From: Corynebacterium glaucum
GTDB lineage: Bacteria > Actinomycetota > Actinomycetes > Mycobacteriales > Mycobacteriaceae
Direction: 5' to 3'
DNA: 64,000 bases
Assembly (NCBI RefSeq): GCF_030408855.1
Contig: NZ_CP047358.1
Coordinates: 1,054,001-1,118,000, forward strand
A program made the position numbers and the translations under genes. The notes below the pieces were generated by a model. It saw nothing but the letters and a program-made list of their open reading frames with translations. It had not been told where the DNA came from and did not search any database. The stretch's first letter is position 1. Each line of letters starts with the position of its first letter. Below, in pieces: positions 1,614 to 53,005 of the stretch.

Positions 1614-3638
1614 TTACGGGCGGTAGTCGTGGTCGGAGATTCGTCGATAAGCAAGAGCTTGTCGACGGCTCTTAGGCACCTGTGGGAGCCGGAACACGTG
1701 CGCGACATTGACTTGCGGCGCAAGGCGGACGTAGTTCTCGGTGCCCCACGTGTAGGTCTCGCCCGTGATCATGTCGTGAACCTCGAACGGCTCGCCAGGG
1801 TTGAGGCCCAGCTCGGTCACATCGAGGCGCAGCGTGCCTTCCTGGGTGAAGTAAGGATCGAGGTTCACCACCACGAGCACGGCGTTGCCGGTGACCGCGT
1901 CGACCTTTGAGTAGGCGATGACATTGTCGTTGGCGATGTCGTGGAAGCGGATGTTGCGCAGCTGCTGTAGCGCCGGGTTGTCGCGGCGGATCTGGTTGAG
2001 CAGCGCGAGGTAGGGCTCGAGGGATTCGCCGCGCTTCAGCGCCGCGTCGAAGTCGCGCGGACGCAGCTGGTACTTCTCGCTGTCCAGGTACTCCTCCGAG
2101 CCGTCGGCGACCGGCTCGTGCTCGTAGAGCTCGTAGCCGGAGTACACGCCCCACAGCGGGCTCATCGTTGCGGCCAGGGTGGCGCGCAGCGCGAACGTGG
2201 CAGGGCCGCCCTTCTGCAGGGACTCGTGGAGGATGTCGGGGGTGTTGACGAAGAGGTTGGGGCGGCTTACGTCGGCGACGTCGATAAGCAGCTGCGCGAA
2301 GTCGGTGAGCTCCGCCTTCGTCGTCTTCCAGGTGAAGTGGGTGTAGGACTGGCTGAATCCTGCCTTGGACAGGCCGTACATGCGCGGAGGACGGGTGAAT
2401 GCCTCGGCCAGGAAGATCACGTCCGGGTCCGTCTCATGAACCTTGGAGATGAGCCAGTGCCAGAAATTCACTGGCTTGGTGTGCGGGTTGTCAACGCGGA
2501 AGGTGGTGATGCCCAAATCCACCCAGTACATGACCACGCGGTAGATCTCGTCGTAGATCGTCTCCGGGGCGTTGTCGAAGTTGATCGGGTAAATGTCCTG
2601 GTACTTCTTCGGCGGGTTCTCGGCGTAGGCGATGGTGCCGTCCGCGAGCACGGTAAAGAACTCCGGGTGCGCTTTTGCCCACGGGTGGTCGGGCGCGGCT
2701 TGCAGCGCGAGGTCGAGCGCGATCTCCAGACCCAGGTCAGCCGCGTGGTCGAGCATTTCGAGGAACTCTGCTTCGCCACCAAGCGCGGGGTGGAACGCGT
2801 CGTGGCCGCCGTCCTTGGAACCGATCGCCCACGGCGAACCCACGTCGTGCTCCTCCGGGGTCAGCGAGTTGTTGCGGCCTTTGCGGTTTATCTCGCCGAT
2901 CGGGTGGATCGGCGGGAAGTACACGGTGTCAAAGCCCATCGCGGCGACGCGATCGAGTGCCGCCGCGGTGGTGGCCCAGGTGCCGTGGACGGGGTTGCCG
3001 GCCTCGTCCACGCCGCCGGTGGATCGGGGGAAGAGTTCGTACCAGGAGTTCACCAGAGCTTCGCGGCGCTCCACCAGGATGTCGCAGATCGGGCCGTGGG
3101 AGATCAGCTCGCGCAGCGGGAAGGCTTCGAGCGCTTCAAGCACCTCATCGGTCAAGCCGGCTTCGACTCGGGTGTGCAGGTCCAAGGTGCCGTCGGCAAG
3201 CACCTTGCGTGCGCGCTCGAGTACCTCCCGCTCGGTGCGGGCTGCCTGCTCTGCCGCTTTGTCGAACAGGAGGATGCCGTGAGCGAGGTCATTGGCCATT
3301 TCTGCCTCGGTCTGGCCGGCGAGGAGCTTCTTGGACACCGCGTTGCGCCAGGTGGCCATGACATCGCTCCACGCGTCGACGCGGAAGCGCCACAGCCCCT
3401 GCTCATCCGGCACGAAAATGGCGTGAACGTAGTCGGGGCGGTAAACCTCCTGCTCCATGGGTACGGAGTACTGCTCGCCGCTCGGTGCGGTGAGCTGGAG
3501 CGTAGCGCCGACGGCATCGTGCCCTTCGCGCCACACCAGCGCGGAAACCGGAACGACTTCCCCCACAACCGCCTTCGCGGGCAGCGTGCGACCTGAAACC
3601 TGGGGGCGGACATCATCAATACCGAAGCGGGCGACCAT
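1614..3638 (-). CDS. glgE: Alpha-1,4-glucan:maltose-1-phosphate maltosyltransferase GlgE
   Basis: Transfers maltose from maltose-1-phosphate to the non-reducing end of alpha-1,4-glucan, the polymerising step of the trehalose-to-glucan (GlgE) pathway. At 674 residues it has the usual family length. An N-terminal beta domain comes first, then a GH13_3 barrel with FRVDNPHTKP (nucleophile Asp), FLAEAFTRP (acid/base Glu) and FVNTPDILHES (third carboxylate), all diagnostic of GlgE rather than ordinary amylases. The ATG at 3638 has AAGGA seven bases upstream. It diverges from the ABC ATPase gene across 145 bp and is followed by glgB. Confidence 0.96.
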   Translation of the reverse strand: MVARFGIDDVRPQVSGRTLPAKAVVGEVVPVSALVWREGHDAVGATLQLTAPSGEQYSVPMEQEVYRPDYVHAIFVPDEQGLWRFRVDAWSDVMATWRNAVSKKLLAGQTEAEMANDLAHGILLFDKAAEQAARTEREVLERARKVLADGTLDLHTRVEAGLTDEVLEALEAFPLRELISHGPICDILVERREALVNSWYELFPRSTGGVDEAGNPVHGTWATTAAALDRVAAMGFDTVYFPPIHPIGEINRKGRNNSLTPEEHDVGSPWAIGSKDGGHDAFHPALGGEAEFLEMLDHAADLGLEIALDLALQAAPDHPWAKAHPEFFTVLADGTIAYAENPPKKYQDIYPINFDNAPETIYDEIYRVVMYWVDLGITTFRVDNPHTKPVNFWHWLISKVHETDPDVIFLAEAFTRPPRMYGLSKAGFSQSYTHFTWKTTKAELTDFAQLLIDVADVSRPNLFVNTPDILHESLQKGGPATFALRATLAATMSPLWGVYSGYELYEHEPVADGSEEYLDSEKYQLRPRDFDAALKRGESLEPYLALLNQIRRDNPALQQLRNIRFHDIANDNVIAYSKVDAVTGNAVLVVVNLDPYFTQEGTLRLDVTELGLNPGEPFEVHDMITGETYTWGTENYVRLAPQVNVAHVFRLPQVPKSRRQALAYRRISDHDYRP

Positions 3639-3783
3639 GGCGTTATCCTTCGTACTTGCTTATTGCTTGCGTTTTCCGCGCGTGCACGTTCAGGCCAAGC
3701 GTAGCGAAGCAGCAGGGTTTTGACCGGTTAACTCCCGCGCCACTTTCCACACAACCGCGCCCAAATAGGCCAAAATAGGACAG

Positions 3784-4644
3784 GTGAGTACGGAAACGAC
3801 GCAAACAGCTCAGACGCAACCCACCACGGATGAGGATCTGCTCATCGACTTCCAGAACGTCTCCTTCGTCCGCGGAGGAAAGACGCTCGTGGGACCGGTG
3901 GATTGGCAGGTCGAGCTGGATGAGCGCTGGGTGGTCGTCGGCCCGAACGGCGCAGGCAAAACCACGCTGATCCGAATGGCATCGGCGCAGGAGTTTCCGT
4001 CCTCGGGCGTGGCCTTTGTGCTCGGGGAGCAGCTGGGCAAGACCGACATGCGCGATCTGCGTGCGGCGATCGGCATCACCTCGTCCGCCATCGCCCAGCG
4101 TGTTCCTGACGACGAGAAGGTCGGCGACTTAGTGGTCTCCGCCGGCTACGCGATCATGGGCCGCTGGCGCGAAGAGTACGAAGGCATGGACTACGAACAG
4201 GCGCTTGAGGTGCTCGAGCAGGTCGGTGCGATGCACCTGATCGACCGGACGTGGGGGACGCTTTCGGACGGCGAGCGTAAGCGCGTCCTGGTCGCGCGCG
4301 CAGTGATGACCAACCCGGAGCTTCTGATCCTGGACGAGCCGGCGGCCGGCATGGACTTGGGCGGGCGCGAAGACCTTATCGGCTACCTCGGCGAGCTCGC
4401 GCTCGACCCGGACGCGCCGGCGATTGTGATGATCACCCACCACCTCGAGGAAATTCCGTACGGCTTCACCCACGCCATGCTTCTCGACGAAGGGTCGGTG
4501 GTCGCCCAAGGCTTAATCGAGGACGTTCTCACCTCCGAGAATGTCTCGAAGGCGTACCACCAGCCGATCGAGGTGACGTACGACGATGGCCGCTACTTCG
4601 CGCGCCGGGCGCGCAAAGGCCGCGGGGGCGCGCACCGCGCTTAA
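3784..4644 (+). CDS. ABC transporter ATP-binding protein, single-domain
   Basis: A cytoplasmic ATPase of 286 residues with one complete nucleotide-binding domain: Walker A GPNGAGKTT near residue 57, signature LSDGERKRV near 159, Walker B LLILDEPAAGMDLGG near 182, and switch His in MITHHLEE. No permease gene is adjacent, and homologues beside glgE in corynebacteria are likewise orphan. It could serve a distant permease or act in a non-transport role, so the substrate is unknown. The start is GTG at 3784 after AGGACAG. The stretch just before it holds the short direct repeat AAATAGGCC/AAAATAGG. Confidence 0.85.
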   Translation: MSTETTQTAQTQPTTDEDLLIDFQNVSFVRGGKTLVGPVDWQVELDERWVVVGPNGAGKTTLIRMASAQEFPSSGVAFVLGEQLGKTDMRDLRAAIGITSSAIAQRVPDDEKVGDLVVSAGYAIMGRWREEYEGMDYEQALEVLEQVGAMHLIDRTWGTLSDGERKRVLVARAVMTNPELLILDEPAAGMDLGGREDLIGYLGELALDPDAPAIVMITHHLEEIPYGFTHAMLLDEGSVVAQGLIEDVLTSENVSKAYHQPIEVTYDDGRYFARRARKGRGGAHRA

Positions 4645-4750
4645 ACGCTGCGCGTCGCCGCACACGGCACCCAGGCTCGGCTGAGCCGGTATGAGTAGTG
4701 GTGGCACCACAAATGGAGCCGCGGATGAATGCGTAGGGAGGTGATGGTCG

Positions 4751-5629
4751 ATGGAAAGGGCGAAAAAGCGCCGAACCGGTGCGGTGTCCACGGATGCCGG
4801 TGACACCATCGACGTCACCGAAACCAGCGGATTCGGAGGCGCGCGCCTGTCCGCCACGGTGATCCTGATGCGCGACCGCGCCGAAGGGTTCGAAGTTTGG
4901 GTTCAAGAACGCGTGCTGAGCATGCCGAATTTCCCAGGCATCACGGTGTTTCCCGGCGGTGGCGTAGATACCCGCGACTTTCCGGGGCGCTCCTGGGACG
5001 ACGGGGAGTTGTGGACTGGACGCTCTGCGATCTCGCTTGCCCGTCAGCTCGGCCTGACCAAGTACAAGGCGCACGCGGTGATGTTCGCAGCTGTGCGCGA
5101 GCTCTTTGAGGAAACGGGTATCTTCCTCGCGGTCGACCACTCCGGCAACCTGCTCGAGGACGCGAGCATTTTCCACGAGCACCGCAACGCGCTCGAGGAG
5201 CACACCATCTCGCTTACCGACGTGCTGCAGCACAACGACCTACAGGTCGACGGCGACCTACTCACCCCTTACGCGCGCTGGATCGGCAAATCCGAACGCG
5301 GCAACTGGTTCGACACCTTTTCCTTTCTTGCCGTGAACCCGGAAGGCCAAGAGCCCGACGGCAACACAGGCGAGGCCGACGACGCGAACTGGTTCCCGCC
5401 ACAATTGCTTGTCGACGGCTGGCGCGCCGGCCTCGTCCGCTTTGCCCCCTCCACCTGGATGCACCTACTCGAGCTCGCCAAGTTCGAAAGCGTTGCAGAA
5501 GTCCTTGCGGCGAAGCAGAACGCCACCATCACCCCGATCGTTGATGAGCAGCACCTCCACCACGCGGGCATGCAGGAATTCCTCCACCGCGCGCCCAAAG
5601 ACCGGATCGGGCGGCGCATTGAGTTGTAG
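4751..5629 (+). CDS. NUDIX hydrolase family protein
   Basis: A 292-residue cytoplasmic hydrolase, probably acting on a nucleoside-diphosphate-linked compound. FPGGGVD near residue 68 and RELFEETG at 116-123 form a NUDIX box split by an insertion of about 30 residues, as in the long eukaryotic-like NUDT19 (CoA/acyl-CoA) branch; that assignment is inference. The C-terminal half (WFDTFSFLA, FPPQLLVDGW) is conserved in the actinobacterial homologues. The ATG at 4751 follows a strong AGGGAGGTG ribosome site. The stop overlaps the proposed TTG start of the next gene by 11 bp, so the two are probably co-transcribed. Confidence 0.85.
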   Translation: MERAKKRRTGAVSTDAGDTIDVTETSGFGGARLSATVILMRDRAEGFEVWVQERVLSMPNFPGITVFPGGGVDTRDFPGRSWDDGELWTGRSAISLARQLGLTKYKAHAVMFAAVRELFEETGIFLAVDHSGNLLEDASIFHEHRNALEEHTISLTDVLQHNDLQVDGDLLTPYARWIGKSERGNWFDTFSFLAVNPEGQEPDGNTGEADDANWFPPQLLVDGWRAGLVRFAPSTWMHLLELAKFESVAEVLAAKQNATITPIVDEQHLHHAGMQEFLHRAPKDRIGRRIEL

Positions 5630-6803
5630 CCATGAAGAGGTCGCGTTCCTCGCTGCCAACGCGCCACGCATTGAGGCTATTGCGCCGGAGATCGCGCTGA
5701 CGAAGCAGTCCGTGTTCGCCGACCGCGCCGTACTCGACCGCGAATTCGGCGACTTTGCCCGCGCGGTGAGTGTGCTCATTTACGCCCAGCGCGCGGCCGT
5801 CGGCAAGCTTCCTGCGCATTGGCTGACTGACTACGATGCCGCCCAGCAGGCCACCCCGCGCGCCGTGGCCGATGTGCGTGCCGGACATGTGCGCGAGGCG
5901 GGCGCGACGCTGGTCCACGACGTGACCTGCTCCGTCGGTTCCGAGGCGCCCGCGTTCGCCGACGCCGGCGTCGCCTGGCTGGGCTCCGACCTTGACCGGT
6001 CTCGGATCGCTATGGCTCGTCACAACCTCGGAGACTCGGCCTGGCTCGCCGTGGCGGACGCGCTCGCGCCTGCGAGCCGCGCCGATGTGGTGGTCGCAGA
6101 CCCAGCCCGGCGCGCGGACGGCAAGCGCATCACCGACCCCGCCAAGCTCATCCCGCCGCTGCCGGACCTCCTCGCCGCGCACGCCGGTCGCGAGCTGGCC
6201 GTGAAATGTGCGCCGGGCATCGACTACTCCGAGTGGGACGGCCTGGTCAGCGTCGTCTCCGTCGACGGCGGCGTCAAAGAAGCCTGCTTGTACACCCCGG
6301 GCTTCGGCCGCGGGCGCGAGGCAGTCGTGCTCAGGGAAGGCTTCGAAGAACGATGCTTATCGACGGCCCCTTCAACGGCCCCAGTCAAACCTCCCGGCGC
6401 GTTCATCATCGAGCCAGATGGTGCCGTGATCCGCGCCGGGCTGGTGTCGCACTGGGCGACGCGTCACGGGCTGTGGATGTTGGATGAGCACATCGCGTTC
6501 TTGTCCGGCGACACGATCCCGGCTGGCTACTCAGGCTTTCCGTTCATCGAGGCAGTGCCGCTGAGGAAGCTGCGCGCCGCGCTCGCCGCGCGTGGGGCGT
6601 CGAGCGCGGAAATTGTCGTGCGCGGCGTCGACGTCGACCCCGACCAGCTGCGCGCGAAGCTCAAACTCAAGGGCGGTAAAGGCGGCAAGGCCGGCAAGGG
6701 CGGCGCGAAACTCAGCGGCGGCGCGGCACCGATGGCGGTGGTCATCGCGCGCATCGGCGACTCTGCGGTCGCCCACATCTGCGGCCCCCGCGTCCATGCT
6801 TAA
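5619..6803 (+). CDS. THUMP-like domain SAM-dependent methyltransferase
   Basis: A 394-residue protein resembling the actinobacterial class I methyltransferase family with a C-terminal THUMP-like domain, probably acting on RNA; the substrate is unknown. Rossmann features are HDVTCSVGSEAPAFA near residue 108, GSDLDRSR near 125, and DVVVADPARRADGKR near 157, a DPPR-like catalytic loop. The C-terminal part (AEIVVRGVDVDPDQLRAKLK, then a Gly/Lys-rich run) is the THUMP-like region. No ATG lies near the conserved N-terminus, so TTG at 5619 is proposed; it overlaps the NUDIX gene by 11 bp. One copy of the recurrent GCTTATCGACG motif is inside the gene. Confidence 0.78.
   Translation: MSCSHEEVAFLAANAPRIEAIAPEIALTKQSVFADRAVLDREFGDFARAVSVLIYAQRAAVGKLPAHWLTDYDAAQQATPRAVADVRAGHVREAGATLVHDVTCSVGSEAPAFADAGVAWLGSDLDRSRIAMARHNLGDSAWLAVADALAPASRADVVVADPARRADGKRITDPAKLIPPLPDLLAAHAGRELAVKCAPGIDYSEWDGLVSVVSVDGGVKEACLYTPGFGRGREAVVLREGFEERCLSTAPSTAPVKPPGAFIIEPDGAVIRAGLVSHWATRHGLWMLDEHIAFLSGDTIPAGYSGFPFIEAVPLRKLRAALAARGASSAEIVVRGVDVDPDQLRAKLKLKGGKGGKAGKGGAKLSGGAAPMAVVIARIGDSAVAHICGPRVHA
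6355..6375 (+). repeat. Extended copy of the GCTTATCGACG recurrent motif
   Basis: Matches GCTTATCGACGGCMCCTTY followed by A-A, one of four long copies in the window. It lies inside the methyltransferase gene on the coding strand. Confidence 0.75.
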
Positions 6804-6969: not shown

Positions 6970-8112
6970 ATGACCTACCTCGACTACGCGGCGACGAGTC
7001 CGATGCGCCAGTGCGCGATCGACGCTTGGCGCGAGCACGCGGGCGCGCTCAACCCCGGCAGCCAATACGCCTCCGGGCGCAAGGCGAACGCGGTGCTCCA
7101 AGAGGCCCGCGAGCAGATCGCTGAGCTGCTCGGCGCGGACCCGGTCGAGGTTGTCTTCACCGGCTCGGGCACCGAGGCGAACAACATTGGGGTGCGCGGG
7201 CTCTACGCCGCCAGCCGAGCGCGCGCCGGCGACGCTGCACCAAACCGCGTGGTCGCGAGCACCATCGAGCACCCCGCAGTGCTCGAGTCGGTGCGTGCGC
7301 TCGAAGCCGCAGGCGCCGACGTCGCGTGGCTATCGGCAGGCCGAGACGGTCACGTCACCGACCTCACCCCGCTAGACGCCCCGGCGGCGGTGGCGACCCT
7401 GATGTGGGCGAATAACGAATCCGGCGCGATCCAGCCGGTACAAGATGCGGCCAAACGCGCCGCCGCCCACTCCACGCCGCTGCACGTCGACGCAGTCCAG
7501 GTGGTTGGCAAGCTCTCCGTGGACTTTCACGCCCTCGGTGCCACGACGCTCGCGGCCAGCGCCCACAAGTTCGGTGGCCCGCGCGGCACGGGCATCCTCC
7601 TGGCCAAGCGCTCTCCTGCACCGCAGCCGGTCATCGCCGGCGGGGGACAGGAGCGCGGCATCCGCTCCGGCACGGTCGATGTCGCCTCCGCCGCAGCCAC
7701 CGCGGCAGCGCTCGCAGAAGCCACCGAAGACATGGAGCGGGAACGCGCCAGAATCGCAATGCTTCGCGACGACTTCGCCAACCGCGTTCTCCGCGAGATC
7801 CCTGACGCGGTCCTGACCACGCAGGAGCCCGCGCTCCCAGGCCACGCGCACTTCCTATTCCCAGGCGCGAATGCGGACGCGATGATCATGTTGTTGGATT
7901 CGCGCGGGATCGAAGTCTCCACCGGTTCCGCGTGTGCCGCAGGTGTGACGCGTTTTAGTCACGTTGTCGAGGCGATGGGCTACACCGAAGCCGAAGGTGG
8001 CGGTGCCCTTCGCGTCACGCTGGGGGAGGGGACGGTACAAGGGGACGTCGATAAGCTCTTGCTCGAACTTCCCGAGGTGGTGCGATGCGCGCGCGATGTG
8101 GGACTGCTGTGA
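6970..8112 (+). CDS. Cysteine desulfurase (IscS/NifS family)
   Basis: A PLP enzyme that takes sulfur from cysteine for tRNA thiolation and probably Fe-S assembly. The 380-residue protein opens with YLDYAATSP. It has the PLP-binding lysine K200 in SAHKFGGPRG and the persulfide cysteine C322 in STGSACAAGV. ATG 6970 was chosen because homologues start here and a TAGGCT -10 element lies 8 bp upstream. In C. glutamicum the nifS2-type gene sits close to mnmA; here about 7.3 kb of other genes separates them. It is the likely sulfur donor for MnmA at 15.5 kb. Confidence 0.93.
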   Translation: MTYLDYAATSPMRQCAIDAWREHAGALNPGSQYASGRKANAVLQEAREQIAELLGADPVEVVFTGSGTEANNIGVRGLYAASRARAGDAAPNRVVASTIEHPAVLESVRALEAAGADVAWLSAGRDGHVTDLTPLDAPAAVATLMWANNESGAIQPVQDAAKRAAAHSTPLHVDAVQVVGKLSVDFHALGATTLAASAHKFGGPRGTGILLAKRSPAPQPVIAGGGQERGIRSGTVDVASAAATAAALAEATEDMERERARIAMLRDDFANRVLREIPDAVLTTQEPALPGHAHFLFPGANADAMIMLLDSRGIEVSTGSACAAGVTRFSHVVEAMGYTEAEGGGALRVTLGEGTVQGDVDKLLLELPEVVRCARDVGLL

Positions 8113-9213: not shown

Positions 9214-9235
9214 AGCAATTCGCTTCTCGACGACT

Positions 9236-9267: not shown

Positions 9268-10079
9268 TCCGGATCCAACTGCTCCGGATCGTGGCGAGCA
9301 GCCCCCTGCGCAGCCAGCGACCGAGCCCACGCGTCATCCTTGAACTGCGCCGGCACCGCGCCCATGAGCAGGTTGCGCGTCAGCTCCGGGGTTGCCTCAA
9401 TCGGCAGGTTCGCCCCGATTAGCACGATGTTGCCGTAACGACGGCCTTTCAGCATCGGCGGGTCCGCAATCGCCGCGACGTGCGGCCAGACCTCGACCAT
9501 GCCGGCCAGCTCGTCCTTCGCTTCCTTCAGGTCCGCGTGCGAGCCGCAGTTCGCCAGGTACACACCACGCTCGCTTAACGACGCCCGCGCCGCCCCGTAA
9601 AACTCCACGGTGGTCAAGTTCCGGGGAGTTGTGGCTGAAGTGAAGACGTCGCGGATGATCACGTCGCGCGTTGCCGGTTTGAAGCCGTCAGTTTCCTCGC
9701 GCGCATCGCCCACGCGAATCTTGACCGCGGGGGCGCGGGGGACGTCGAAAAGCTCGCGGGCGAGCACCGCGAGCTCCGAATCGATTTCAACGACCGTATT
9801 GCGTGAGCCTTTCCAGGCGTGAGCGAAATAGCGGGGCATGGTGCAGGCCGCGCCGCCGAGGTGGGTGAGCCGGGCTTTTTCCTTGGGGCCGGCGGAGTAT
9901 GCGTCGTCGATGAAGTCGGCCATCCAGCGCATGTACTCGAAGTCGAGCCGCTCGGGGTCCCCGGGCACGATGTGCGAGCTGGGCACGCCGTTGACCAGCA
10001 GCACCATGGAGCCGTCGGGTTCATGGAGCACCTCGGCGATGCCGGTGTCGATCTCGTAGAACTCGCTTTTCTCGGCCAT
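9246..10079 (-). CDS. Spermidine synthase-like (PABS fold) protein
   Basis: A 277-residue protein with the polyamine-synthase Rossmann fold: LTHLGGAACTMPRYFAH near residue 81, VVEIDSELAVLAREL near 104, and DVIIRDVFTSATTPRNLTT near 140. Genuine spermidine synthases have fuller acidic catalytic loops, and corynebacterial members of this family are generally unassigned, so an aminopropyl- or methyltransferase role is only a guess. ATG 10079 was chosen over longer starts because a TACCCT -10 element lies 6 bp upstream and the extra N-terminus is low complexity. It is monocistronic and convergent with the lysozyme gene. Confidence 0.8.
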   Translation of the reverse strand: MAEKSEFYEIDTGIAEVLHEPDGSMVLLVNGVPSSHIVPGDPERLDFEYMRWMADFIDDAYSAGPKEKARLTHLGGAACTMPRYFAHAWKGSRNTVVEIDSELAVLARELFDVPRAPAVKIRVGDAREETDGFKPATRDVIIRDVFTSATTPRNLTTVEFYGAARASLSERGVYLANCGSHADLKEAKDELAGMVEVWPHVAAIADPPMLKGRRYGNIVLIGANLPIEATPELTRNLLMGAVPAQFKDDAWARSLAAQGAARHDPEQLDPETEDPGV

Positions 10080-11614: not shown

Positions 11615-12528
11615 GCGCTCAACGCCTCCCGTCCGGTCAAGCCGATGAACACTTCCTCCAGGCTGCGGCGCTTGCGCACCACCTGGTGCAGCGGGACACC
11701 GTGGGACACCAGCTGCGCGCAGACCTCGGCGACTTGCTCATCGGTCATACCGGAGAGTTCCAATCCGCCGTCGGCGGGCGCAGGACCCAAACCACGCAGC
11801 AGGTCCGCCGCGATGGGGGCGGCTGGGGTTTGGATGAAGACGTCGGGCAACTGGGCGTCGTAAAGCTCTTGCTGCGAACCCTGAAAGACGCACCGACCTT
11901 GATTGATGATGGTGAGGTGCGATGCCATCTTTTCAATCTCCGAGAGCAAGTGGCTGGAGACGAGCACCGTGCGGCCCTGTTCGCGTGCGAGGCTGACGAT
12001 GAGCTCGCGGATTTCCTCGATGCCGGCCGGGTCGAGGCCGTTGGTGGGCTCGTCGAGGATAAGCAGCTGTGGGTCGCGCGCGAGCGCCATTGCGATGCCT
12101 AGGCGCTGCTTCATACCCAGCGAGTAGTTCTTGACCAGCTTGTCCATCTGGCTTTCCAGCCGGACCAGCTTGATGGCGCGCTGCGCGTGCGCGGGATCGG
12201 CTTTGAGCAGGCGGGTGGCAATGCGCATGTTTTCCCCGCCGGTGAGGTGCGGGTACGCCGAGGGTGCCTCGATCAGCGAACCGACGCCGGCGAGCACCTG
12301 GGGGCGGGTAGCAGCGGTCATCGGCTGGCCGAGCATCATGATCTCGCCGCTCGTCGGGGCGATGAGGCCGAGCAGCATTTTCATAGTGGTGGATTTGCCG
12401 GAACCGTTGGGCCCGAGCAGACCGTGCACCACACCGGGCGCGACCTGAAGGTTGAGGTTGTTCACCACGGCTGTGTTGCCGTAGGTCTTGGTCAGACCCC
12501 GCGTTGCAATGATTGGTTGTGTGTCCAT
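11611..12528 (-). CDS. ABC transporter ATPase, BcrA/lantibiotic-exporter type
   Basis: The 305-residue ATPase driving the two permeases downstream. Walker A GPNGSGKST near residue 39, signature YSLGMKQRLGIAMAL near 136, Walker B LLILDEPTNGLDPAG near 157 and switch His in VSSHLL. The C-terminal 80 residues form the regulatory tail seen in BcrA-like drug-export ATPases. First gene of the operon, transcribed towards the left from a region with an 8-2-8 palindrome at 12589 that is the likely response-regulator target. Gene order matches the antibiotic-inducible export modules of Firmicutes and actinobacteria. Confidence 0.9.
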   Translation of the reverse strand: MDTQPIIATRGLTKTYGNTAVVNNLNLQVAPGVVHGLLGPNGSGKSTTMKMLLGLIAPTSGEIMMLGQPMTAATRPQVLAGVGSLIEAPSAYPHLTGGENMRIATRLLKADPAHAQRAIKLVRLESQMDKLVKNYSLGMKQRLGIAMALARDPQLLILDEPTNGLDPAGIEEIRELIVSLAREQGRTVLVSSHLLSEIEKMASHLTIINQGRCVFQGSQQELYDAQLPDVFIQTPAAPIAADLLRGLGPAPADGGLELSGMTDEQVAEVCAQLVSHGVPLHQVVRKRRSLEEVFIGLTGREALSA

Positions 12529-12616: not shown

Positions 12617-13303
12617 TTAAGAATCCAGCAAGTCGGCCCGCTCCACTAACCCGGTCCGATAGGCGAACAGGGCCGCATGCACCCGGTCGCGCGAGGAGGT
12701 CTTCGCCAGCACGCGCCCCACGTGCGTCTTCACCGTCGGCATCGAGATGAACATCCGCTCGGTGATCTCGGTGTTCGTCCACCCGCGCCCAATCGCCACC
12801 AGCACCTCCCGCTCCCGCTCGGTCAGCTCTTCCAGCGCGAGCCGGTCGGCAGGGGAGAGGGGCAAGGATTGCTCGGGAGCTTCATTGAGCTTTGCGACGA
12901 TCCGGTTCGTCGCCTTGGGAGAAATCACCGCGTCTCCGGCGGCGACCGTGCGAATTGCGTCGAGGAGCGCCTCCGGCTCGGCGTCTTTGAGGAGGAACCC
13001 GCTCGCGCCGGCTGCCAGTCCACCGAGCACGTAATCCTCGTCGTCGAAGGTGGTCAAGATGATCACCTTGGTGTCCGGGTGGCGCTGGGTGAGTTGGCGC
13101 GTCGCGGCAATACCGTCGAGGACCGGCATCTGCACGTCCATGAGCACGATGTCGACTGGTTGTTCCGCGGCGTTGGTGAGCGCCGCTTCACCGTTGGCCG
13201 CGAGCCACCGGACGTCCAGGTCCGGCTGGGAATCGATCACGCCGCGGATGCCGTGGAGGAACAGGGCCTGGTCGTCGGCGAGGCCGATGGTGTGGGCGCT
13301 CAC
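12617..13303 (-). CDS. Response regulator, NarL/LuxR type
   Basis: A 228-residue transcription factor. The receiver domain (1-120) has the acidic pocket ADDQ, the phosphorylation site D56 in VLMDVQMP, and the conserved Thr and Lys (ILTTFD, FLLKDAEP). The LuxR-type HTH (165-225) reads LTEREREVLVAIGRGWTN then ITERMFISMPTVKTHVG. The start is GTG 13303, whose first bases overlap the kinase stop (GTGA). Cognate kinase is the upstream gene. The shared palindrome before the kinase gene and before the ABC operon makes autoregulation and control of the exporter likely. Confidence 0.92.
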   Translation of the reverse strand: MSAHTIGLADDQALFLHGIRGVIDSQPDLDVRWLAANGEAALTNAAEQPVDIVLMDVQMPVLDGIAATRQLTQRHPDTKVIILTTFDDEDYVLGGLAAGASGFLLKDAEPEALLDAIRTVAAGDAVISPKATNRIVAKLNEAPEQSLPLSPADRLALEELTEREREVLVAIGRGWTNTEITERMFISMPTVKTHVGRVLAKTSSRDRVHAALFAYRTGLVERADLLDS

Positions 13304-14481
13304 TGGGCCACCTCCTGCGGAGCATCGGTTCTGCGCAGCGGAATTGTCGCCTCTGTGACCCAGGTGTTGGTCTCGGTAGGGGCGGCGGTGACGAAGCCGT
13401 CGATAAGCGATGCTCTCTCCTGCATGCCCTGGAGACCGGTGCCGGTCGAGGGGAGAGTTCCGCGCGGCGGAATCGGGTTGGTTGTGCGGACTGCGACGTT
13501 GTCCTCGTTCCAGTCGACGGTGAGCTGCGCGGTGCCGGTGCCGTGTTTGAGCGCGTTGGTGAGCGATTCTTGGATGATGCGCTGCACCGCGAGCGTGGTG
13601 GCGGGGGCGAGGTCCGCGGGTGGTTGGCCGTGGACGGTGTAGTCGACCTCGAGTCCGCCGGCGCGGCTGGTGGCGACGAGCTGGTCGATGTCGAGGGTTT
13701 CTACGAGTGGGGTGACGGGGCGCTGCTCTGAGCCGCGAAGCAGGCCGACGACGCCACGCATCTGCTTCAGGGAATCGCGGCCGACTTTGGCGATGGTGCG
13801 CAGCGCGTCGTCTTTGGTTTCGGTGCGAGCGCCGGTGTCCGGTGCGCTGGCGTAGAGAGCGCCGTCGGCTTGCGCGACGATAACGGTGAGCGAGTGGGTG
13901 ACAATGTCGTGAATCTCGCGGGCGAGGTGGGCGCGCTGCTCCTCGGCTGCGCGCTCGAATTCTTCCCGCTGACGTTCCAGCCGTGCCTGGAGCTCCTTCT
14001 CTGCGGTCTCCTCGGCGCGGCGGCGCAGCTCGCCGAAGAGGCTGGCCGCGATGAGGAGCGTGACGCTCCAGGCGATATACGGAGCTCGTTCGGCCGGTGT
14101 TAGTGCGGTGATCGTCGGTGAAATGAGAGTCAGCGCGACGGTGTCGCCGACAAACAGGGCGACGGTAATCAGGTCGCGGTGCGGCGAGGGCAGGTGGCGG
14201 CGGGCGATGTAGGCGGCGAAAGGGGCGAGCGCGACCGAGCCGGTGGGCAACGTTGGCCTGAACGCGCAGATTGCGAGCGCTGCGGTGATAGCTGCGACGG
14301 TGAGTAGCGGCCACCGCCAGCGAGTGAACGGAGCCGCGAAAGCGCAGAGCAGGAGCACCACATCTAGCGCGATGTTGCTTGAGGTTTGGAAGGCACCGAG
14401 CAGGCATGCGAACGCGAGCCCTGCGGCGAGAGCCAAGTCTCGGTATCGGGACCGGCGAAGCGACGACGTCTGCACATCCAT
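13300..14481 (-). CDS. Sensor histidine kinase, HisKA_3 type
   Basis: A 393-residue membrane kinase. The N-terminal 150 residues hold about five transmembrane segments with almost no extracellular loop, the intramembrane-sensing layout often found in kinases linked to ABC exporters. A coiled coil (150-185) leads to the phosphoacceptor H191 in REIHDIVTHS. The ATPase domain has IIQESLTNALKHG (N box) and GTGLQGMQERA (G box). ATG 14481 is preceded by a TAGCCT -10 element at 8 bp. Stop and regulator start overlap by four bases. Confidence 0.92.
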   Translation of the reverse strand: MDVQTSSLRRSRYRDLALAAGLAFACLLGAFQTSSNIALDVVLLLCAFAAPFTRWRWPLLTVAAITAALAICAFRPTLPTGSVALAPFAAYIARRHLPSPHRDLITVALFVGDTVALTLISPTITALTPAERAPYIAWSVTLLIAASLFGELRRRAEETAEKELQARLERQREEFERAAEEQRAHLAREIHDIVTHSLTVIVAQADGALYASAPDTGARTETKDDALRTIAKVGRDSLKQMRGVVGLLRGSEQRPVTPLVETLDIDQLVATSRAGGLEVDYTVHGQPPADLAPATTLAVQRIIQESLTNALKHGTGTAQLTVDWNEDNVAVRTTNPIPPRGTLPSTGTGLQGMQERASLIDGFVTAAPTETNTWVTEATIPLRRTDAPQEVAQ

Positions 14482-17063: not shown

Positions 17064-17934
17064 TCAACTCCCTCCCGCACCGACCGCGTTCGGTCTCGGC
17101 CCGCTACCCGGTACCGACCTCGCGAACGCAGCCGACATCGTCATCTCCGAAACCCCACTGCCACACATCCCGCAACTGCCCGATCGCGGCATCGGTTCGG
17201 ATGCAATCGGGCGCACCGCAGCACTCCTAGACATTCCCGTCGAACCCGGACCTCGCGGCTGGCGCGTCGCCCCACGCCCGCGCACCCAAACCCAGTTCCG
17301 GGACCAGATGGAGCGTGACCTCGACGTACTCGAGGAGCTCTGGGCCAGCAAAATCGATCAGGTCAAGGTGCAACTCGTTGGGCCATGGACGCTCGCGGCG
17401 GAAATCGAAATGGCAAATGGGCACCGCATGATCACCGACCCCGGCGCGCTTCGCGACATCACAGAAGCGTTCGCCGGAGCGGTGGAGCAGCATAAAGGTG
17501 CCGTCGATAAGCGGATTGCTCCAACCGTTTTGCAACTCGACGAGCCGCGACTCGCCGACATTGCTGCGGGCAACCTCAAGGGAGCGACCGATTACGAGGA
17601 GATCCGTGCATACCCAGAGCCGTTTGAGCGGCTCGCAGGCTTCGGGGAATTTTTGCTCAATGCACCATTGCTTATCGACGCCCCCTGGCAGACCGCAGAC
17701 CTCAAATCGCTGACCTCGGCTGGGCAGCGCGATCGGGTCGCGGAGTTGTTGGAAAGCGGGGCGCGGTTGGCCATTGCGCCCGTTGAGCCGGATTGGCTTT
17801 GGCGCTACTTCGACGAGTTACAACTCGACCTGGCGGTTACAGCGCTTGATGTGTTCGCGGCTGGCGGCAGCACTTTGACAGAGTCCGCTAAGAATTACCG
17901 CGCCGCGAGGGAGATGGCTGAAGGTTTGCGGTAA
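17056..17934 (+). CDS. MetE C-terminal-like (cobalamin-independent methionine synthase family) protein
   Basis: A 292-residue protein resembling the C-terminal catalytic barrel of MetE, as found beside ligA in mycobacteria and corynebacteria. It begins TAFGLGPLPGTDLANAADIV and has VKVQLVGPWTLAAEIE near residue 104 and TVLQLDEPRLADI near 157. Full MetE has about 750 residues and a His/Cys zinc site; only the barrel is present here and the HxC ligand set is not obvious, so methionine synthesis should not be assumed. GTG 17056 overlaps the upstream gene by 8 bp. Two GCTTATCGACG copies, in opposite orientations, lie in this gene. Confidence 0.8.
   Translation: MASQLPPAPTAFGLGPLPGTDLANAADIVISETPLPHIPQLPDRGIGSDAIGRTAALLDIPVEPGPRGWRVAPRPRTQTQFRDQMERDLDVLEELWASKIDQVKVQLVGPWTLAAEIEMANGHRMITDPGALRDITEAFAGAVEQHKGAVDKRIAPTVLQLDEPRLADIAAGNLKGATDYEEIRAYPEPFERLAGFGEFLLNAPLLIDAPWQTADLKSLTSAGQRDRVAELLESGARLAIAPVEPDWLWRYFDELQLDLAVTALDVFAAGGSTLTESAKNYRAAREMAEGLR
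17492..17512 (-). repeat. Extended copy of the GCTTATCGACG recurrent motif
   Basis: On the minus strand it reads GCTTATCGACGGCACCTTT followed by A-T. It is inside the MetE-like gene, antisense to the coding strand, and matches the long intergenic copies at 49501 and 52985. Confidence 0.75.
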
Positions 17935-19513: not shown

Positions 19514-22557
<3,044 letters not shown>

Positions 22558-44918: not shown

Positions 44919-45503
44919 ATGGATATTGATCGCGAGAACTTTTTCGCAGCCCCGACGCTGGCAAATGAATGGGTCACCCTCGAGCCACTTAGCGGCGAGC
45001 ACGCGGATGCGCTCGCCGCCGCTGTCGGTGACCTTCACGAATTGTGGTATCAGGACCACATTCCGTCGATAAGCGAAGTCCCCGAGTACATCGAGCGACT
45101 GCTCGGGGAGGACAACCGCGTCGCGTGGACGATCGTCAACCCTGACGGCACCCCGGTCGGGGTGACAACGTACCTCCACCTCGACCCGGTAAATCGCAAT
45201 CTCGAGATCGGCTCCACCTGGATCGGCGCCGACTTTCAGGGAGGTGCGCTCAATCCCGCAGCGAAGTTGCTCTTGTTGCAGCGCGCCTTCGAGGACCTTC
45301 GCTGCTTGCGAGTAGAAATTCGCACCCACTACATGAACCGCCAGTCGCGTGCGGCCATCGAAAAGGTCGGCGCGAAGCTTGACGGAGTGCTCCGGCGGCA
45401 CAAGATCCTAAAGTCCGGCCTCGTGCGTGATACCTGCGTGTACTCCATCCTTGACACTGAGTGGCCCGAGGTGAAAACCGGCCTGCAGGCGCGACTAGAC
45501 TGA
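44919..45503 (+). CDS. GNAT acetyltransferase, RimJ/RimL type
   Basis: A 194-residue acetyltransferase. [15 protein letters not shown] near residue 22 is the RimJ/L-type N-terminus; the acetyl-CoA region is [24 protein letters not shown] near 90, and [29 protein letters not shown] carries the C-terminal signature. Substrate unknown; N-terminal or antibiotic acetylation are both possible. ATG 44919 is chosen over the in-frame TTG at 44913 from the -10 element. gatB begins 5 bp after the stop but has its own promoter. Confidence 0.85.
45496..45501 (+). promoter_or_regulatory. -10 hexamer TAGACT, leaderless start of gatB
   Basis: TAGACT overlaps the end of the GNAT gene and ends 7 bp before ATG 45509. 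Confidence 0.6.
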
Positions 45504-45508
45504 ACGCC

Positions 45509-47011
45509 ATGACTGCGTACGACCTGATGGATTTTGACGAGGTGCTGGAGAAGTACGACCCGGTCATGGGTCTTGAGGTGCACGTCGAGCTCGCGACGGA
45601 AACAAAGATGTTCTCCACCTCCTCTGCTCACTTTGGTGCGGAGCCTAACACCAACATCGACCCCGTCTCGCTGGGTCTTCCGGGCGCATTGCCCGTGGTC
45701 AACGCGAAGGGGGTGGAGTGGGCCATCAAAATCGGCCTTGCACTGAACTGCAAGATCGCCGAATCGTCCCGCTTCGCTCGGAAAAACTACTTCTACCCGG
45801 ACCAGCCGAAGAACTACCAGATCTCGCAGTACGACGAGCCAATCGCTTACGACGGCTACTTGGACGTGGTTTTGGAGGATGGCACTGAGTGGCGCGTGGA
45901 GATCGAGCGCGCGCACATGGAGGAAGACACCGGCAAGCTCACACACCTGGGTTCCGCATCCGGGCGCATTACCGGTGCGACCGCCTCGCTGGTGGACTGC
46001 AACCGTGCCGGCATTCCGCTGATTGAGATCGTGACCAAGCCCATCGAGGGCGCGGGCGAGCGCGCGCCCGAGGTCGCCAAGGCGTACGTCGGCGCGCTTC
46101 GCGAGCTGGTCAAGGCGCTCGGGGTTTCCGACGCGCGCATGGATCAAGGTTCGATGCGCTGCGACGCCAACGTGTCGCTGCGCCCGATTGGCCAGGAAAA
46201 GTTTGGCACCCGCACCGAAACGAAGAACATCAACTCGCTGAAGTCGGTCGAACAGGCGGTGCGTTTCGAGATGCAGCGTCAAGCCGCCGTGCTAGACAAC
46301 GGCGAGGAAATCATCCAGGAGACCCGCCACTACCAGGAGAAGGACGGCACCACATCCAAAGGCCGCCCCAAGGAGGAGGCGAGCGACTACCGCTACTTCA
46401 ACGACCCGGATCTGCCGCCGGTGATCGCCAAACCGCAGTGGGTTGAGGAGATCCGCGCGACTTTGCCGGAACTGCCGTGGGTGCGTCGCGCCCGCATCCA
46501 GGAGGAGTGGCAGTTGCCGGAGAAGGAGTTCCGCGATCTGGTCAACGCCGGTGCACTCGACCTCATCGTGGACACGGTGGAGGCCGGCGCTACTCCGGAC
46601 GAGGCCCGCGCGTGGTGGGTCAGCTACATCAACGGCAAAGCGAACGAGGCCGGAAAGGATCTCGACGCGCTTGGTGTCACCCCGCAGGACGTTGCCCGCG
46701 TTGTCGAGCTGGTCAAGGACGGCAAACTGACCACCAAGCTTGGGCGCCAAGCTATCGATGGTGTGATCGAGGGCGATGGCAGCGTCGACGAAGTCGTCGC
46801 CAAGCGTGGGCTCGAAGTGGTGCGTGACGACGGTGCGATTGAGGCTGCCGTAGACGAGGCTCTGGCCGCAAACCCGGACATCGTGGAGAAATACCGCGCC
46901 GGTAACACCAAGGTCACCGGCGCCATTGTTGGTGCTGTAATGAAGGCAACACAGGGCAAGGCCGACCCAGGCCAAGTCAACAAGCTCATCGCGGCCAAGC
47001 TCGCAGACTAG
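45509..47011 (+). CDS. gatB: Asp/Glu-tRNA amidotransferase subunit B (GatB)
   Basis: The kinase and tRNA-binding subunit of GatCAB. The 500-residue protein has [61 protein letters not shown], and the C-terminal Yqey-like helical domain used for tRNA recognition. The family's N-terminal zinc Cys pattern is not evident here, as in other actinobacteria. ATG 45509 has a -10 element at 7 bp. Ends 12 bp from the convergent YkvI-type gene. Confidence 0.96.
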
Positions 47012-49491: not shown

Positions 49492-49500
49492 GAGTTTCTT

Positions 49501-49521
49501 GCTTATCGACGGCACCTTTGA
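49501..49521 (+). repeat. Extended copy of the GCTTATCGACG recurrent motif, intergenic
   Basis: GCTTATCGACGGCACCTTT then G-A, 9 bp after the GNAT stop codon and before the DoxX gene. Confidence 0.75.
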
Positions 49522-49580: not shown

Positions 49581-49587
49581 CTGCATC

Positions 49588-50520: not shown

Positions 50521-50571
50521 ATCCCCATTCCAACCCGCGACCCCCAGCCGGCCGGACCGAGCCTGCCAGAT

Positions 50572-52410
50572 CTAATCCACCTGGCGGACGGCGCCCTTGT
50601 CGGCGCTGGTCGCCATTTTGGCGTAGGCCTTCAGCGCTTTCGACACCTCGCGAGCGCGGTTCGGCGTCCAGGGGCGGTCCGACGCCTCCATCTCCGCGCG
50701 GCGCTTCGCCAGCACCTCATCATCGACATCGAGCGTCAGTTCGCGATTCGCAACAGAGATGGTGATGGTGTCTCCGTCTTCGACCAGCCCGATCAGACCG
50801 CCGTGCGCTGCTTCGGGGGAGATGTGGCCGATCGAGAGGCCGGAGGTGCCGCCCGAGAAGCGGCCGTCGGTAATCAGCGCGCATTTCTTGCCCAGGCCAG
50901 CGCCTTTGAGGAACGAGGTGGGGTGCAGCATTTCCTGCATGCCCGGTCCGCCGGCAGGGCCCTCGTAGCGGATCACAATGACCTCACCTTCGAGCACCTC
51001 GCGGGCAAGAATCATCGATACCGCCTGTTCCTGCGAGTCGACGACCCGTGCGGGGCCGGAGAACTCCCAGAGGCCTTCCTCCACACCGGCGGTCTTCAAA
51101 ATCGCCCCGTCCGGTGCCAGGTTGCCGCGCAACACGACGAGGCCGCCGTCAGATGTGATCGGGTGCTCGACATCGTGGATAACGCCGTTGGCCGCATCCG
51201 TGTCCAACGACTCCCAGCGGGCAGACTGGGAGAACGCCTCGGTGGTGCGCTGACCGCCAGGCGCGGCGTGGTAGAGCTCCACGGCTTCGTCGATCGTGGA
51301 CCCGCCGCGGATATCCCAGTCAGACAGCCACGAGTCCAGTGAGTCGTATGCGACCGTGTGCACATCGTCGTGAAGCAATCCGCCCCGGTGCAGCTCGCCG
51401 AGGATGGCTGGGATGCCGCCAGCACGGTGCACGTCCTCAACGTGTGCTTCGCCATTCGGTGCCACCTTGGACAGGCAGGGGATTTGGTGGGAAAGATCGT
51501 CGATGTCGCTGAGATCGAAGTCCACCTCGCCCTCTTGGGCAGCGGCGAGGATGTGCAAGATGGTGTTTGTGGAACCACCCATAGCCATATCCAGGGCCAT
51601 CGCGTTGCGGAACGCGTGCTCGGTGGCAATCGCGCGCGGAAGCACCGACTCATCGCCATCGCCGTAGTAGCGCTTGCACAGCTCCACGATCCGGGAGCCG
51701 GCCGACTCGAAGAGCGCGCGGCGCGCCGTGTGCGTGGCCAAGGTCGTGCCGTTGCCCGGCAGCGACAGCCCGAGTGCCTCGGTGAGGCAGTTCATGGAGT
51801 TGGCGGTGAACATGCCGGAGCAGGACCCACAGGTGGGGCAGGCGCTGTTGGCAATCTGGTCGAGTTCCGTGTCGGATACCGCGTCGTTCGCAGAAAGCGC
51901 GATTGCGTCGATCAGGTCGGACTTCGGCTTGGTTACGCCACCCGCAGAGATCGCCTTGCCAGCCTCCATCGGACCGCCGGAAACAAACACGGCCGGAATG
52001 TTTAAGCGCATCGCCGCGTTGAGCATGCCCGGGGTGATCTTGTCGCAGTTGGAGATGCACACCATGGCGTCAACGGTGTGCGCGTTGCACATGTACTCCA
52101 CCGAGTCGGCGATGATCTCGCGGCTGGGCAGCGAGTACAGCATGCCGGCATGCCCCATGGCGATGCCGTCGTCCACCGCAATAGTGTTGAACTCCTTCGG
52201 CACGCCACCTGCTGCACGCACTGCCTCGGCCACGACGTCGCCGACGTTCTTCAGGTGCACGTGCCCGGGAACGAACTGGGTGTAGGAGTTGACGATCGCC
52301 ACGATCGGCTTGCCAAACTCCGACTCTTCGGTGCCGGTAGCGCGCCACAGTGCGCGGGCTCCGGCCGCCTGGCGGCCGACAGTGGTGACGCGTGAACGAA
52401 GCGGGATCAC
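50572..52410 (-). CDS. ilvD: Dihydroxy-acid dehydratase IlvD
   Basis: Dehydrates dihydroxy-isovalerate and dihydroxy-methylvalerate in valine, leucine and isoleucine synthesis. The 612-residue protein has the Fe-S ligands in [11 protein letters not shown] and [17 protein letters not shown], and the C-terminal [15 protein letters not shown] block. GTG 52410 overlaps the upstream stop (GTGA), so it is coupled to the PH-domain gene. It is transcribed away from ilvBNC 2.4 kb off, as in C. glutamicum. Confidence 0.97.
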
Positions 52411-52955: not shown

Positions 52956-52962
52956 GCGTGCC

Positions 52963-52968
52963 ATGCTA
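52963..52968 (-). promoter_or_regulatory. -10 hexamer TAGCAT, leaderless start of PH gene and ilvD
   Basis: TAGCAT on the minus strand ends 7 bp before ATG 52955 and probably serves ilvD as well. Confidence 0.5.
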
Positions 52969-52984
52969 GTCACCGGAGCTTTTC

Positions 52985-53005
52985 GCTTATCGACGGCCCC
53001 TTTAA
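52985..53005 (+). repeat. Extended copy of the GCTTATCGACG recurrent motif, intergenic
   Basis: GCTTATCGACGGCCCCTTT then A-A lies between the PH gene promoter and the mscCG stop codon, just touching the latter. Confidence 0.75.

What the first reader, a model, noticed from the sequence alone, without database searches (positions are those of the whole stretch)
1642..52995. GCTTATCGACG: an 11-mer scattered through the window far above chance, in both orientations
I found exact GCTTATCGAC or its complement 14 times. Plus orientation: 6355, 17670, 25981, 49501, 52985. Minus orientation: 1642, 2279, 8046, 13398, 17502, 25766, 26308, 30569, 45064. Thirteen continue with G. With about 60% GC the chance expectation for this 10-mer on both strands is roughly 0.1 per window (hand estimate). 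Four copies extend to GCTTATCGACGGCMCCTTY (6355, 17492, 49501, 52985), two of them intergenic. Near-copies GCTTGTCGACGG (1658, 5407) and GCTTCTCGACG (9211, 60387, 61718) also occur. Reading frame and strand vary, so protein coding does not explain it. It behaves like an uptake, recombination, segregation or nucleoid-architecture signal. I know of no such motif described for Corynebacterium.
Basis: partly seen in the sequence, partly recalled or inferred. Interest (0 to 1): 0.8.

Follow-up and report, generated by a model that had tools for sequence, protein, structure and literature searches.

The report
Self-DNA uptake-signal-like motif in Corynebacterium
A short DNA word, GCTT-two free letters-CGACG, is scattered about 1,550 times through this Corynebacterium chromosome and, in clade-specific spellings, through most sampled relatives of its genus, and it looks like a tag by which these bacteria would recognise their own kind's DNA when taking DNA up.

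Summary
The 11-mer occurs 13 times in the window and 508 times in the genome (reversed control 1). It is the best instance of a gapped core, GCTT-NN-CGACG: 1,554 copies, reversed control 103. Strand, replichore and origin distance do not matter; codon choice bends to the motif. The emptiest of 40 sampled stretches holds a plasmid-like metal-resistance island. Of 201 genus genomes, 140 carry the C form (280-1,964 copies), 10 more only a T form (GCTTNNCGATG, 625-1,184), 51 neither; 113 genomes of 30 other genera have at most 7 copies of the 11-mer. In a 39-genome tree the 7 T-form genomes share one clade; absence is scattered. ComEC is in 201 of 201 genomes, DprA and TadA in 80 of 80, ComEA in 79 of 80. 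Best reading: a DNA uptake sequence of the DUS/USS kind, independently evolved in Actinomycetota and spread by uptake-biased transformation, probably through a Flp/Tad-ComEA-ComEC machine. Uptake is untested, the receptor unknown, and these genes do not separate carriers from non-carriers. Nine paper searches (capped lists, titles and abstract openings) showed no report of such a signal in Corynebacterium. New variant of a known kind; interest high.

The parts
1642..1652 (-). core site GCTTATCGACG, coding sense f0
1657..1667 (+). core site GCTTGTCGACG, coding anti f0; inverted pair with 1642
2279..2289 (-). core site GCTTATCGACG, coding sense f2
3191..3201 (-). core site GCTTGCCGACG, coding sense f2
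4479..4489 (+). core site GCTTCTCGACG, coding sense f2
5212..5222 (+). core site GCTTACCGACG, coding sense f2
5407..5417 (+). core site GCTTGTCGACG, coding sense f2
5798..5808 (-). core site GCTTGCCGACG, coding anti f2
6355..6365 (+). core site GCTTATCGACG (extended copy), coding sense f1
7761..7771 (+). core site GCTTCGCGACG, coding sense f2
8046..8056 (-). core site GCTTATCGACG, coding anti f2
9222..9232 (+). core site GCTTCTCGACG, intergenic
9573..9583 (+). core site GCTTAACGACG, coding anti f1
9743..9753 (-). core site GCTTTTCGACG, coding sense f2
11856..11866 (-). core site GCTTTACGACG, coding sense f2
12889..12899 (+). core site GCTTTGCGACG, coding anti f2
13398..13408 (-). core site GCTTATCGACG, coding sense f2
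17502..17512 (-). core site GCTTATCGACG (extended copy), coding anti f2
17670..17680 (+). core site GCTTATCGACG, coding sense f2
21897..21907 (+). core site GCTTGTCGACG, coding sense f2
25466..25476 (-). core site GCTTCACGACG, coding sense f2
25766..25776 (-). core site GCTTATCGACG, coding sense f2
25981..25991 (+). core site GCTTATCGACG, coding anti f2
26308..26318 (-). core site GCTTATCGACG, coding sense f2
28529..28539 (+). core site GCTTGCCGACG, coding sense f2
30569..30578 (-). 10-mer GCTTATCGAC followed by A, so not a full core site
31048..31058 (+). core site GCTTTGCGACG, coding sense f2
34048..34058 (+). core site GCTTTTCGACG, coding sense f0
35350..35360 (+). core site GCTTGACGACG, coding sense f2
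45064..45074 (-). core site GCTTATCGACG, coding anti f1
46795..46805 (-). core site GCTTGGCGACG, coding anti f2
49501..49511 (+). core site GCTTATCGACG (extended copy), intergenic
51366..51376 (-). core site GCTTCACGACG, coding sense f2
52985..52995 (+). core site GCTTATCGACG (extended copy), intergenic
53661..53671 (-). core site GCTTCACGACG, coding sense f2
58871..58881 (-). core site GCTTACCGACG, coding sense f2
60387..60397 (+). core site GCTTCTCGACG, coding sense f2
60942..60952 (-). core site GCTTTTCGACG, coding anti f2
61719..61729 (+). core site GCTTCTCGACG, coding sense f2

Best explanation
GCTTNNCGACG (best form GCTTATCGACG with a T-rich 5' flank) is a DNA uptake sequence of the DUS/USS kind that arose independently in Corynebacterium. 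Proposed mechanism: a surface DNA receptor, most likely a component of the Flp/Tad pilus (a minor pilin) or ComEA, binds the duplex motif in either orientation; pilus retraction and ComEA-ComEC import the fragment; DprA and RecA recombine it. Because fragments carrying the motif are taken up preferentially, the motif accumulates by molecular drive at positions that tolerate it, until there is about one per 1.6 kb. When receptor specificity drifts, the whole genomic set is rewritten (C to T at position 10, AT to GC at positions 5-6), giving dialects; when specificity is lost, the set decays. Shown: the repeat, its DNA-level nature, even orientation, dialects and scattered absence along a tree, one nearly empty acquired island, and presence of competence-type genes. 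Inferred: that uptake is the driving process, that the Flp/Tad-Com machine carries it out, and the receptor.
For: (1) Abundance like USS/DUS: 1,554 copies in 2.53 Mb, reversed control 103; the literature gives 1,465 USS in H. influenzae and 1,892 DUS in N. meningitidis (PMC7811141, passages). (2) Sharp specificity: changing any of the 9 core letters drops 514 sampled copies to 4-59; shuffled 4-2-5 words average 10, at most 40. (3) DNA level, not codons or RNA: CTT in 312 of 418 L-(NNC)-D contexts against 15 of 146 in the matched L-(NNC)-E control; intergenic copies between co-directional genes 15 sense, 19 antisense; similar density in co-directional, divergent and convergent gaps. (4) No replichore bias, 272 of 514, p 0.20, with dnaA at the contig start and the terminus taken from GC skew; no origin-terminus gradient. 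(5) Fewer close neighbours than random: 59 gaps under 300 bp against 83 +- 7.7. (6) The emptiest of 40 20-kb stretches (2 copies, mean about 12, Poisson P 0.0006, picked among 40) holds metal-resistance genes matching plasmids of other actinobacteria, best 96.6-98.9%; both copies lie outside the listed plasmid matches. The literature says uptake sequences are under-represented in newly acquired segments and rRNA genes (PMC7811141, passages). (7) Dialects: 140 C-form and 10 T-form-only genomes of 201; the 7 of 11 T-form genomes that I placed on a tree share one clade, as DUS dialects follow phylogeny (PMC3630211, passages). (8) Machinery: ComEC in 201 of 201, TadA and DprA in 80 of 80, ComEA in 79 of 80. 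In Micrococcus luteus, also an actinobacterium, tad/Flp genes are absolutely required for transformation (PMC4322843, passages).
Against: No uptake or transformation was measured, and in the lists I saw no paper on natural competence in Corynebacterium. ComEC, DprA, TadA and ComEA are as common in genomes without the signal, so they do not predict it. One T-form carrier, G138, shows only 51 residues of ComEA in a 121-aa frame and no ComEA-type HHH domain. No carrier-specific gene was found, and tad proteins evolve no faster in non-carriers on the whole (medians 0.89-1.12 against 0.97-1.10 for neighbours; G195 is an exception with 2.19 for TadB and 3.34 for ssd). The inverted-pair arrangement described for part of DUS/USS is not evident, and spacing is close to random rather than even, whereas even spacing is reported for such sequences (PMC1939737, passages). 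Density rises with gene GC from 0.25 to 0.83 per kb; I did not model how much of this is composition. rRNA evidence is small (6.5 kb of this genome). Low density in foreign DNA would also arise under any process that needs time to build sites.
Confidence: 0.72

Rival explanations
1. A nucleoid or chromosome-architecture protein binds the motif, and selection keeps the sites for chromosome folding or segregation.
For: Dispersed over the sampled chromosome with no gradient; confined to the genus among the 121 family genomes searched.
Against: Even orientation on both replichores rules out a polar KOPS-type guide. Not palindromic, unlike most dimeric architecture sites (recalled). Neither form in 51 of 201 genomes, scattered in the tree, and rewriting of about 1,000 sites to CGATG in one clade are hard to get from weak selection on each site (inference).
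Confidence: 0.11
2. A Chi-like recombination hotspot read by AdnAB or another helicase-nuclease.
For: Over-represented asymmetric word; a recombination-linked drive could also build it.
Against: No replichore bias, 272 of 514, whereas Chi is co-oriented with replication in the species I recall; core plus flanks are longer than Chi sites I know of (recalled); absent in whole lineages.
Confidence: 0.05
3. A transfer bias on the donor side (packaging, vesicle or conjugative export preferring the motif) rather than uptake, producing the same molecular drive.
For: The genomic signatures of drive (dispersal, dialects, the nearly empty island) would be the same.
Against: No export system was sought here; import-type genes are near-universal in the genus, and both precedents act at uptake.
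Confidence: 0.07
4. A side effect of codon or peptide usage, Leu-Ile-Asp in one frame.
For: 301 of 442 coding core copies are sense frame 2.
Against: CTT chosen in 312 of 418 such contexts against 15 of 146 in the matched control; Val-Asp-Lys uses GTC-GAT-AAG in 43 of 73; noncoding density is higher than coding, 0.75 against 0.57 per kb.
Confidence: 0.01
5. An intergenic mobile repeat, transcription terminator or regulator operator.
For: 72 of 514 copies are noncoding or partly so, with a longer shared context.
Against: 442 of 514 copies are inside genes; intergenic density is similar in co-directional, divergent and convergent gaps, with no sense bias; of 135 alignable sites 105 are within three core mismatches of the relative, which fits point mutation rather than insertion.
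Confidence: 0.02

Closest known systems
USS of Pasteurellaceae (H. influenzae)
   Same: Nine-letter core, about 1,500 copies, AT-rich flank, scarce in acquired DNA, point-mutation origin, dialects (PMC7811141, passages; PMC12616744, abstract)
   Different: Unrelated sequence, other phylum, gapped core, a Flp/Tad-type locus instead of a classical type IV pilus, near-random spacing, receptor unknown, uptake not shown
DUS of Neisseriaceae
   Same: Dialects that share an invariant core and follow the tree; some family members without a signal (PMC3630211, passages)
   Different: Unrelated sequence; no counterpart of the ComP receptor identified here; inverted pairs not evident
Flp/Tad pilus-dependent transformation of Micrococcus luteus
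   Same: tadA-B-C, small Flp-type pilin, minor pilins, comEA-comEC (PMC4322843, passages)
   Different: 'Uptake sequence' does not occur in that paper's main text; M. luteus has two tad clusters, G000 one TadA
HIP1 of cyanobacteria
   Same: Highly iterated short word of debated function (PMC4390886, search listing)
   Different: HIP1 is a palindrome; this motif is not

Membership tests
DNA uptake sequence (DUS/USS) | Short asymmetric word far above chance across the genome | tested here: met
   1,554 against 103 reversed control
DNA uptake sequence (DUS/USS) | Both orientations equally, no replichore bias | tested here: met
   770 forward, 784 reverse; 272 of 514 leading
DNA uptake sequence (DUS/USS) | More in noncoding than coding DNA; fewer under strong constraint | tested here: met
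   0.75 against 0.57 per kb; top codon-score quintile lowest at 0.41, bottom quintile also low at 0.50 (own gene calls)
DNA uptake sequence (DUS/USS) | Under-represented in newly acquired DNA | tested here: met
   2 against a mean of about 12 per 20 kb in one plasmid-like island; a single case, picked as the emptiest of 40
DNA uptake sequence (DUS/USS) | Under-represented in rRNA genes | tested here: inconclusive
   0 copies in 5.5 kb and 1.0 kb of two rRNA operons of this genome (about 4 expected) and in 5.3 kb of a non-carrier's
DNA uptake sequence (DUS/USS) | Sites evolve by point mutation and turn over | tested here: met
   135 of 223 sites alignable; 40 of 135 keep the core (4-8% expected from overall identity alone), 105 of 135 within three mismatches, at 69-75% identity (shared positions counted from both sides)
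DNA uptake sequence (DUS/USS) | Dialects among relatives following phylogeny | tested here: met
   7 of 7 T-form genomes on the tree in one clade, which also holds one non-carrier
DNA uptake sequence (DUS/USS) | Host has natural-transformation machinery | tested here: met
   ComEC 201 of 201; TadA, DprA 80 of 80; ComEA 79 of 80; equally in non-carriers; function untested
DNA uptake sequence (DUS/USS) | Sequence-specific receptor (ComP; proposed ComN) | tested here: inconclusive
   Small pilin-like proteins match in 39 of 39 loci, no carrier-specific signature
DNA uptake sequence (DUS/USS) | Measured preferential uptake of motif-bearing DNA | not testable with these tools
   needs bench work
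DNA uptake sequence (DUS/USS) | Inverted pairs (a minority trait, about 10% per PMC1939737, passages) | tested here: not met
   9 neighbouring pairs within 60 bp among 514 sites, 6 inverted; 17.6 pairs expected at random. Not a defining feature
Chi or KOPS | Strand bias relative to replication | tested here: not met
   92 of 184; 272 of 514
HIP1-type iterated palindrome | Palindromic word | tested here: not met
   GCTTNNCGACG is not its own reverse complement
DnaA box | Fixed TTATCCACA-like word (recalled) | tested here: not met
   AT at positions 5-6 is replaceable (AT 184, GT 62, GA 51, GC 35 ...) while CGACG is fixed

The most novel reading that the evidence does not exclude
A third, independent origin of self-DNA recognition in bacterial transformation, and the first in Gram-positive or mycolic-acid bacteria: about three quarters of sampled Corynebacterium genomes mark their own chromosomes with roughly 300-2,000 copies of GCTTNNCGA(C/T)G, read by a Flp/Tad pilus-type machine, with clade dialects that partition gene flow within the genus and repeated loss of the tag.
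Probability: 0.63. Interest if true: 0.95.

Novelty: new variant of a known kind. Interest (0 to 1): 0.87.

Why it matters
If true, self-specific DNA uptake evolved a third time, in a phylum and cell envelope where I found no description of it, and natural transformation is predicted to be widespread in Corynebacterium. It predicts which species exchange genes (same dialect), offers a tool for genetics in species that are hard to work with, and supplies many related genomes with dialect shifts and absences to test whether uptake signals are molecular drive or an adaptation, a long-open question.

Tried and rejected
Alternative motifs in non-carriers: gapped and ungapped word scans of 160 kb each of G014, G133, G163 and G128 gave nothing comparable; the G133 palindrome TGCACGTGCA is confined to local arrays in 2 of 8 stretches and the G147 word TGTGAAAAACC to inverted pairs. 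Gene presence as discriminator: ComEC, TadA, DprA and ComEA are near-universal. The HHH_3 tally of 80 of 80 is misleading, because the best hit of most genomes is another protein of about 800 aa; ComEA-sized frames are listed for 74, five more came, and G138 is the exception. TadA scores at first looked like a split by signal, but the 4 of 25 low scorers that I placed on a tree form one deep clade, so this may be phylogeny. Tad matches in 39 of 39 are profile matches at E up to 0.01; in the deep clade TadB and TadC are one frame. Relative rates of tad proteins gave no signal apart from G195. Regular spacing: overall close to random; the shortage of short gaps is seen for the core but not for the 11-mer alone (17 against 18.3 under 500 bp). 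Phage depletion: BFK20 has 1 copy in 43 kb, but I do not know whether its host carries the signal. The search for the motif letters gave 24 papers, 20 listed, none on this topic by title.
Full report
WHAT IS THERE. The 10-mer GCTTATCGAC occurs 14 times in the window (0.09 expected) and the 11-mer 508 times in the 2,529,320-base chromosome, reversed control 1. I sampled 40 spaced 20-kb stretches and, with the window, had 864 kb. There the 11-mer has 184 copies against 2.1 expected. Testing every position showed that letters 5 and 6 are nearly free: the core is GCTT-NN-CGACG, 514 copies in the sample; any other single change leaves 4-59 copies, and shuffled words of the same shape average 10, at most 40. 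Genome-wide it has 770 + 784 = 1,554 copies, reversed control 103. The window holds 38. The commonest middle is AT (184), then GT, GA, GC, TT; CC is absent. Noncoding copies share a longer context, a T-rich tract 5' of the core and C/T-rich positions 3' of it.

DNA, NOT CODONS OR RNA. Own gene calls (791 genes, 88.9% coding) place 442 of 514 copies inside genes, 301 of them in one sense frame (Leu-x-Asp), 124 antisense. This frame bias looks like tolerance, not cause: in L-(NNC)-D contexts with the right neighbours CTT is used in 312 of 418, in the L-(NNC)-E control in 15 of 146; Val-Asp-Lys is spelled GTC-GAT-AAG in 43 of 73 (5.6 expected). Noncoding density is higher, 0.75 against 0.57 per kb, similar in co-directional, divergent and convergent gaps, with 15 sense and 19 antisense copies between co-directional genes. 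With dnaA at the contig start and the terminus near 1.29 Mb from GC skew, replichore orientation is even (272 of 514, p 0.20). There is no origin gradient, and gaps under 300 bp are fewer than random (59 against 83 +- 7.7), while overall spacing is close to random. Density rises with the GC of genes, 0.25 to 0.83 per kb across quintiles; I did not model composition.

WHERE IT IS MISSING. The emptiest of the 40 stretches, C1:885262-905261, has 2 copies where about 12 are usual. It holds mercury and copper resistance genes (Pfam for two of them; plasmid annotation). In the 12 listed of 63 matching plasmid records identity runs from 75% to 98.9%, best in Micrococcus, Corynebacterium maris and C. 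stationis (about 99%, merA) and Rothia (96.6%, copper cluster); the listed matches end at base 11,999, and the two copies lie at 13,852 and 15,692. The next emptiest (5 copies) is a 56% GC stretch; the two of its proteins that I scanned are family 2 glycosyltransferases. Within the rRNA operons seen, 5.5 kb and 1.0 kb of this genome and 5.3 kb of a non-carrier, there is no copy; about 4 would be expected in the 6.5 kb, so this is weak.

ACROSS THE GENUS. Of 201 genomes, 140 have 280-1,964 copies of GCTTNNCGACG and 61 have 8-134, with nothing between. Eleven have 625-1,337 copies of GCTTNNCGATG, one of them (G143) with both forms; so 150 of 201 carry a form and 51 carry neither (G073, with 213 T-form copies, counted as non-carrier). 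Among C-form genomes the middle letters also differ: in 60 kb each, G056 and G156 prefer GC, G122 and G162 AT. Named carriers are C. bouchesdurhonense SN14 (1,235), C. haemomassiliense (1,409) and C. urinipleomorphum (1,152); C. pygosceleis (108) and C. otitidis (102) are low for the C form. In 113 genomes of 30 other genera of the family the 11-mer has at most 7 copies. In a tree of 39 genomes (five genes, 2,549 columns) the seven T-form genomes present form one clade with one non-carrier inside, and non-carriers recur in several places; 8 changes are needed, 17.4 on average with shuffled labels, 11 at least. The 39 were those whose tad locus I fetched, not a random draw, and 7 of the 11 T-form genomes. 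Sites turn over: in the tad region of nine relatives 135 of 223 sites could be aligned, 40 of these keep the core (4-8% expected from overall identity alone) and 105 are within three mismatches. So sites are retained more than chance but most are not shared.

MACHINERY. G000 has comEA-comEC-holA and one tad locus: TadA (T2SSE, 168.8 bits), two T2SSF-like proteins (one just under the curated cut-off), a DUF4244 small protein and two further small pilin-like proteins without Pfam match (holA and the pilin-like reading are by position and sequence, recalled). ComEC is in 201 of 201, TadA and DprA in 80 of 80. ComEA-sized HHH_3 frames are listed for 74 of 80 and five more match the G000 ComEA; the exception is the T-form carrier G138, with 51 matching residues in a 121-aa frame. 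Tad proteins match in 39 of 39 loci. So the machine is near-universal and the signal is not. Non-carriers may take up DNA without preference or not at all. In M. luteus Flp/tad genes are absolutely required for transformation (PMC4322843, passages).

READING. The features resemble those described for DUS and USS (PMC3630211, PMC7811141, PMC1939737, passages): number, core sharpness, flank, both orientations, scarcity in new DNA, point-mutation origin, dialects. They differ in near-random spacing and lack of inverted pairs. Molecular drive by biased uptake explains how about 1,000 sites can change spelling together; weak selection at each site for an architecture protein explains this less easily (inference). 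Membership in the DUS/USS kind remains unproven, as uptake bias and receptor are untested. Paper searches of the held open-access library showed no paper on such a signal in Corynebacterium. Only searches listed all their hits (9 and 10); the others listed 8-20 of 24-476. I saw titles and abstract openings of the listed papers, and passages of five and the abstract of one; subscription papers and preprints are not held.

Noticed in passing
L097 and L098 (G147), e.g. L097:4113-4206: TGTGAAAAACC occurs in four inverted pairs, each with the same spacing (73 bases between listed coordinates); looks like a small element or paired operator.
   Followed up: no
L095:15401-15721 and L227:2035-4182 (G133): Local arrays of the palindrome TGCACGTGCA (4 and 9 copies, mostly 80-130 bases apart) in a non-carrier genome; absent from the other 6 stretches held.
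   Followed up: partly
L045 (G000:C1:885262-905261): Metal-resistance island (merA/MerR, copper ATPase, multicopper oxidase) nearly identical in parts to plasmids of other actinobacteria.
   Followed up: partly
L123, L124, L125, L126: A deep clade without the signal has TadB and TadC joined in one reading frame; in three of the four (not G030) the tad locus lies on the other side and strand relative to the contig start.
   Followed up: partly
tree: G082, G195, G181: Several non-carrier lineages have longer branches than their carrier sisters; G195 also has fast TadB and ssd.
   Followed up: no
G195:C1:543012-543797 and G148:C1:674637-675131: In-frame TGA inside the ComEC and the ComEA match, respectively, in two non-carrier genomes; could be decay or sequencing error.
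   Followed up: no
G138:C2:1654904-1655047: T-form carrier with only a short N-terminal piece of ComEA (51 residues, 121-aa frame) found; recent loss or assembly gap not distinguished.
   Followed up: no
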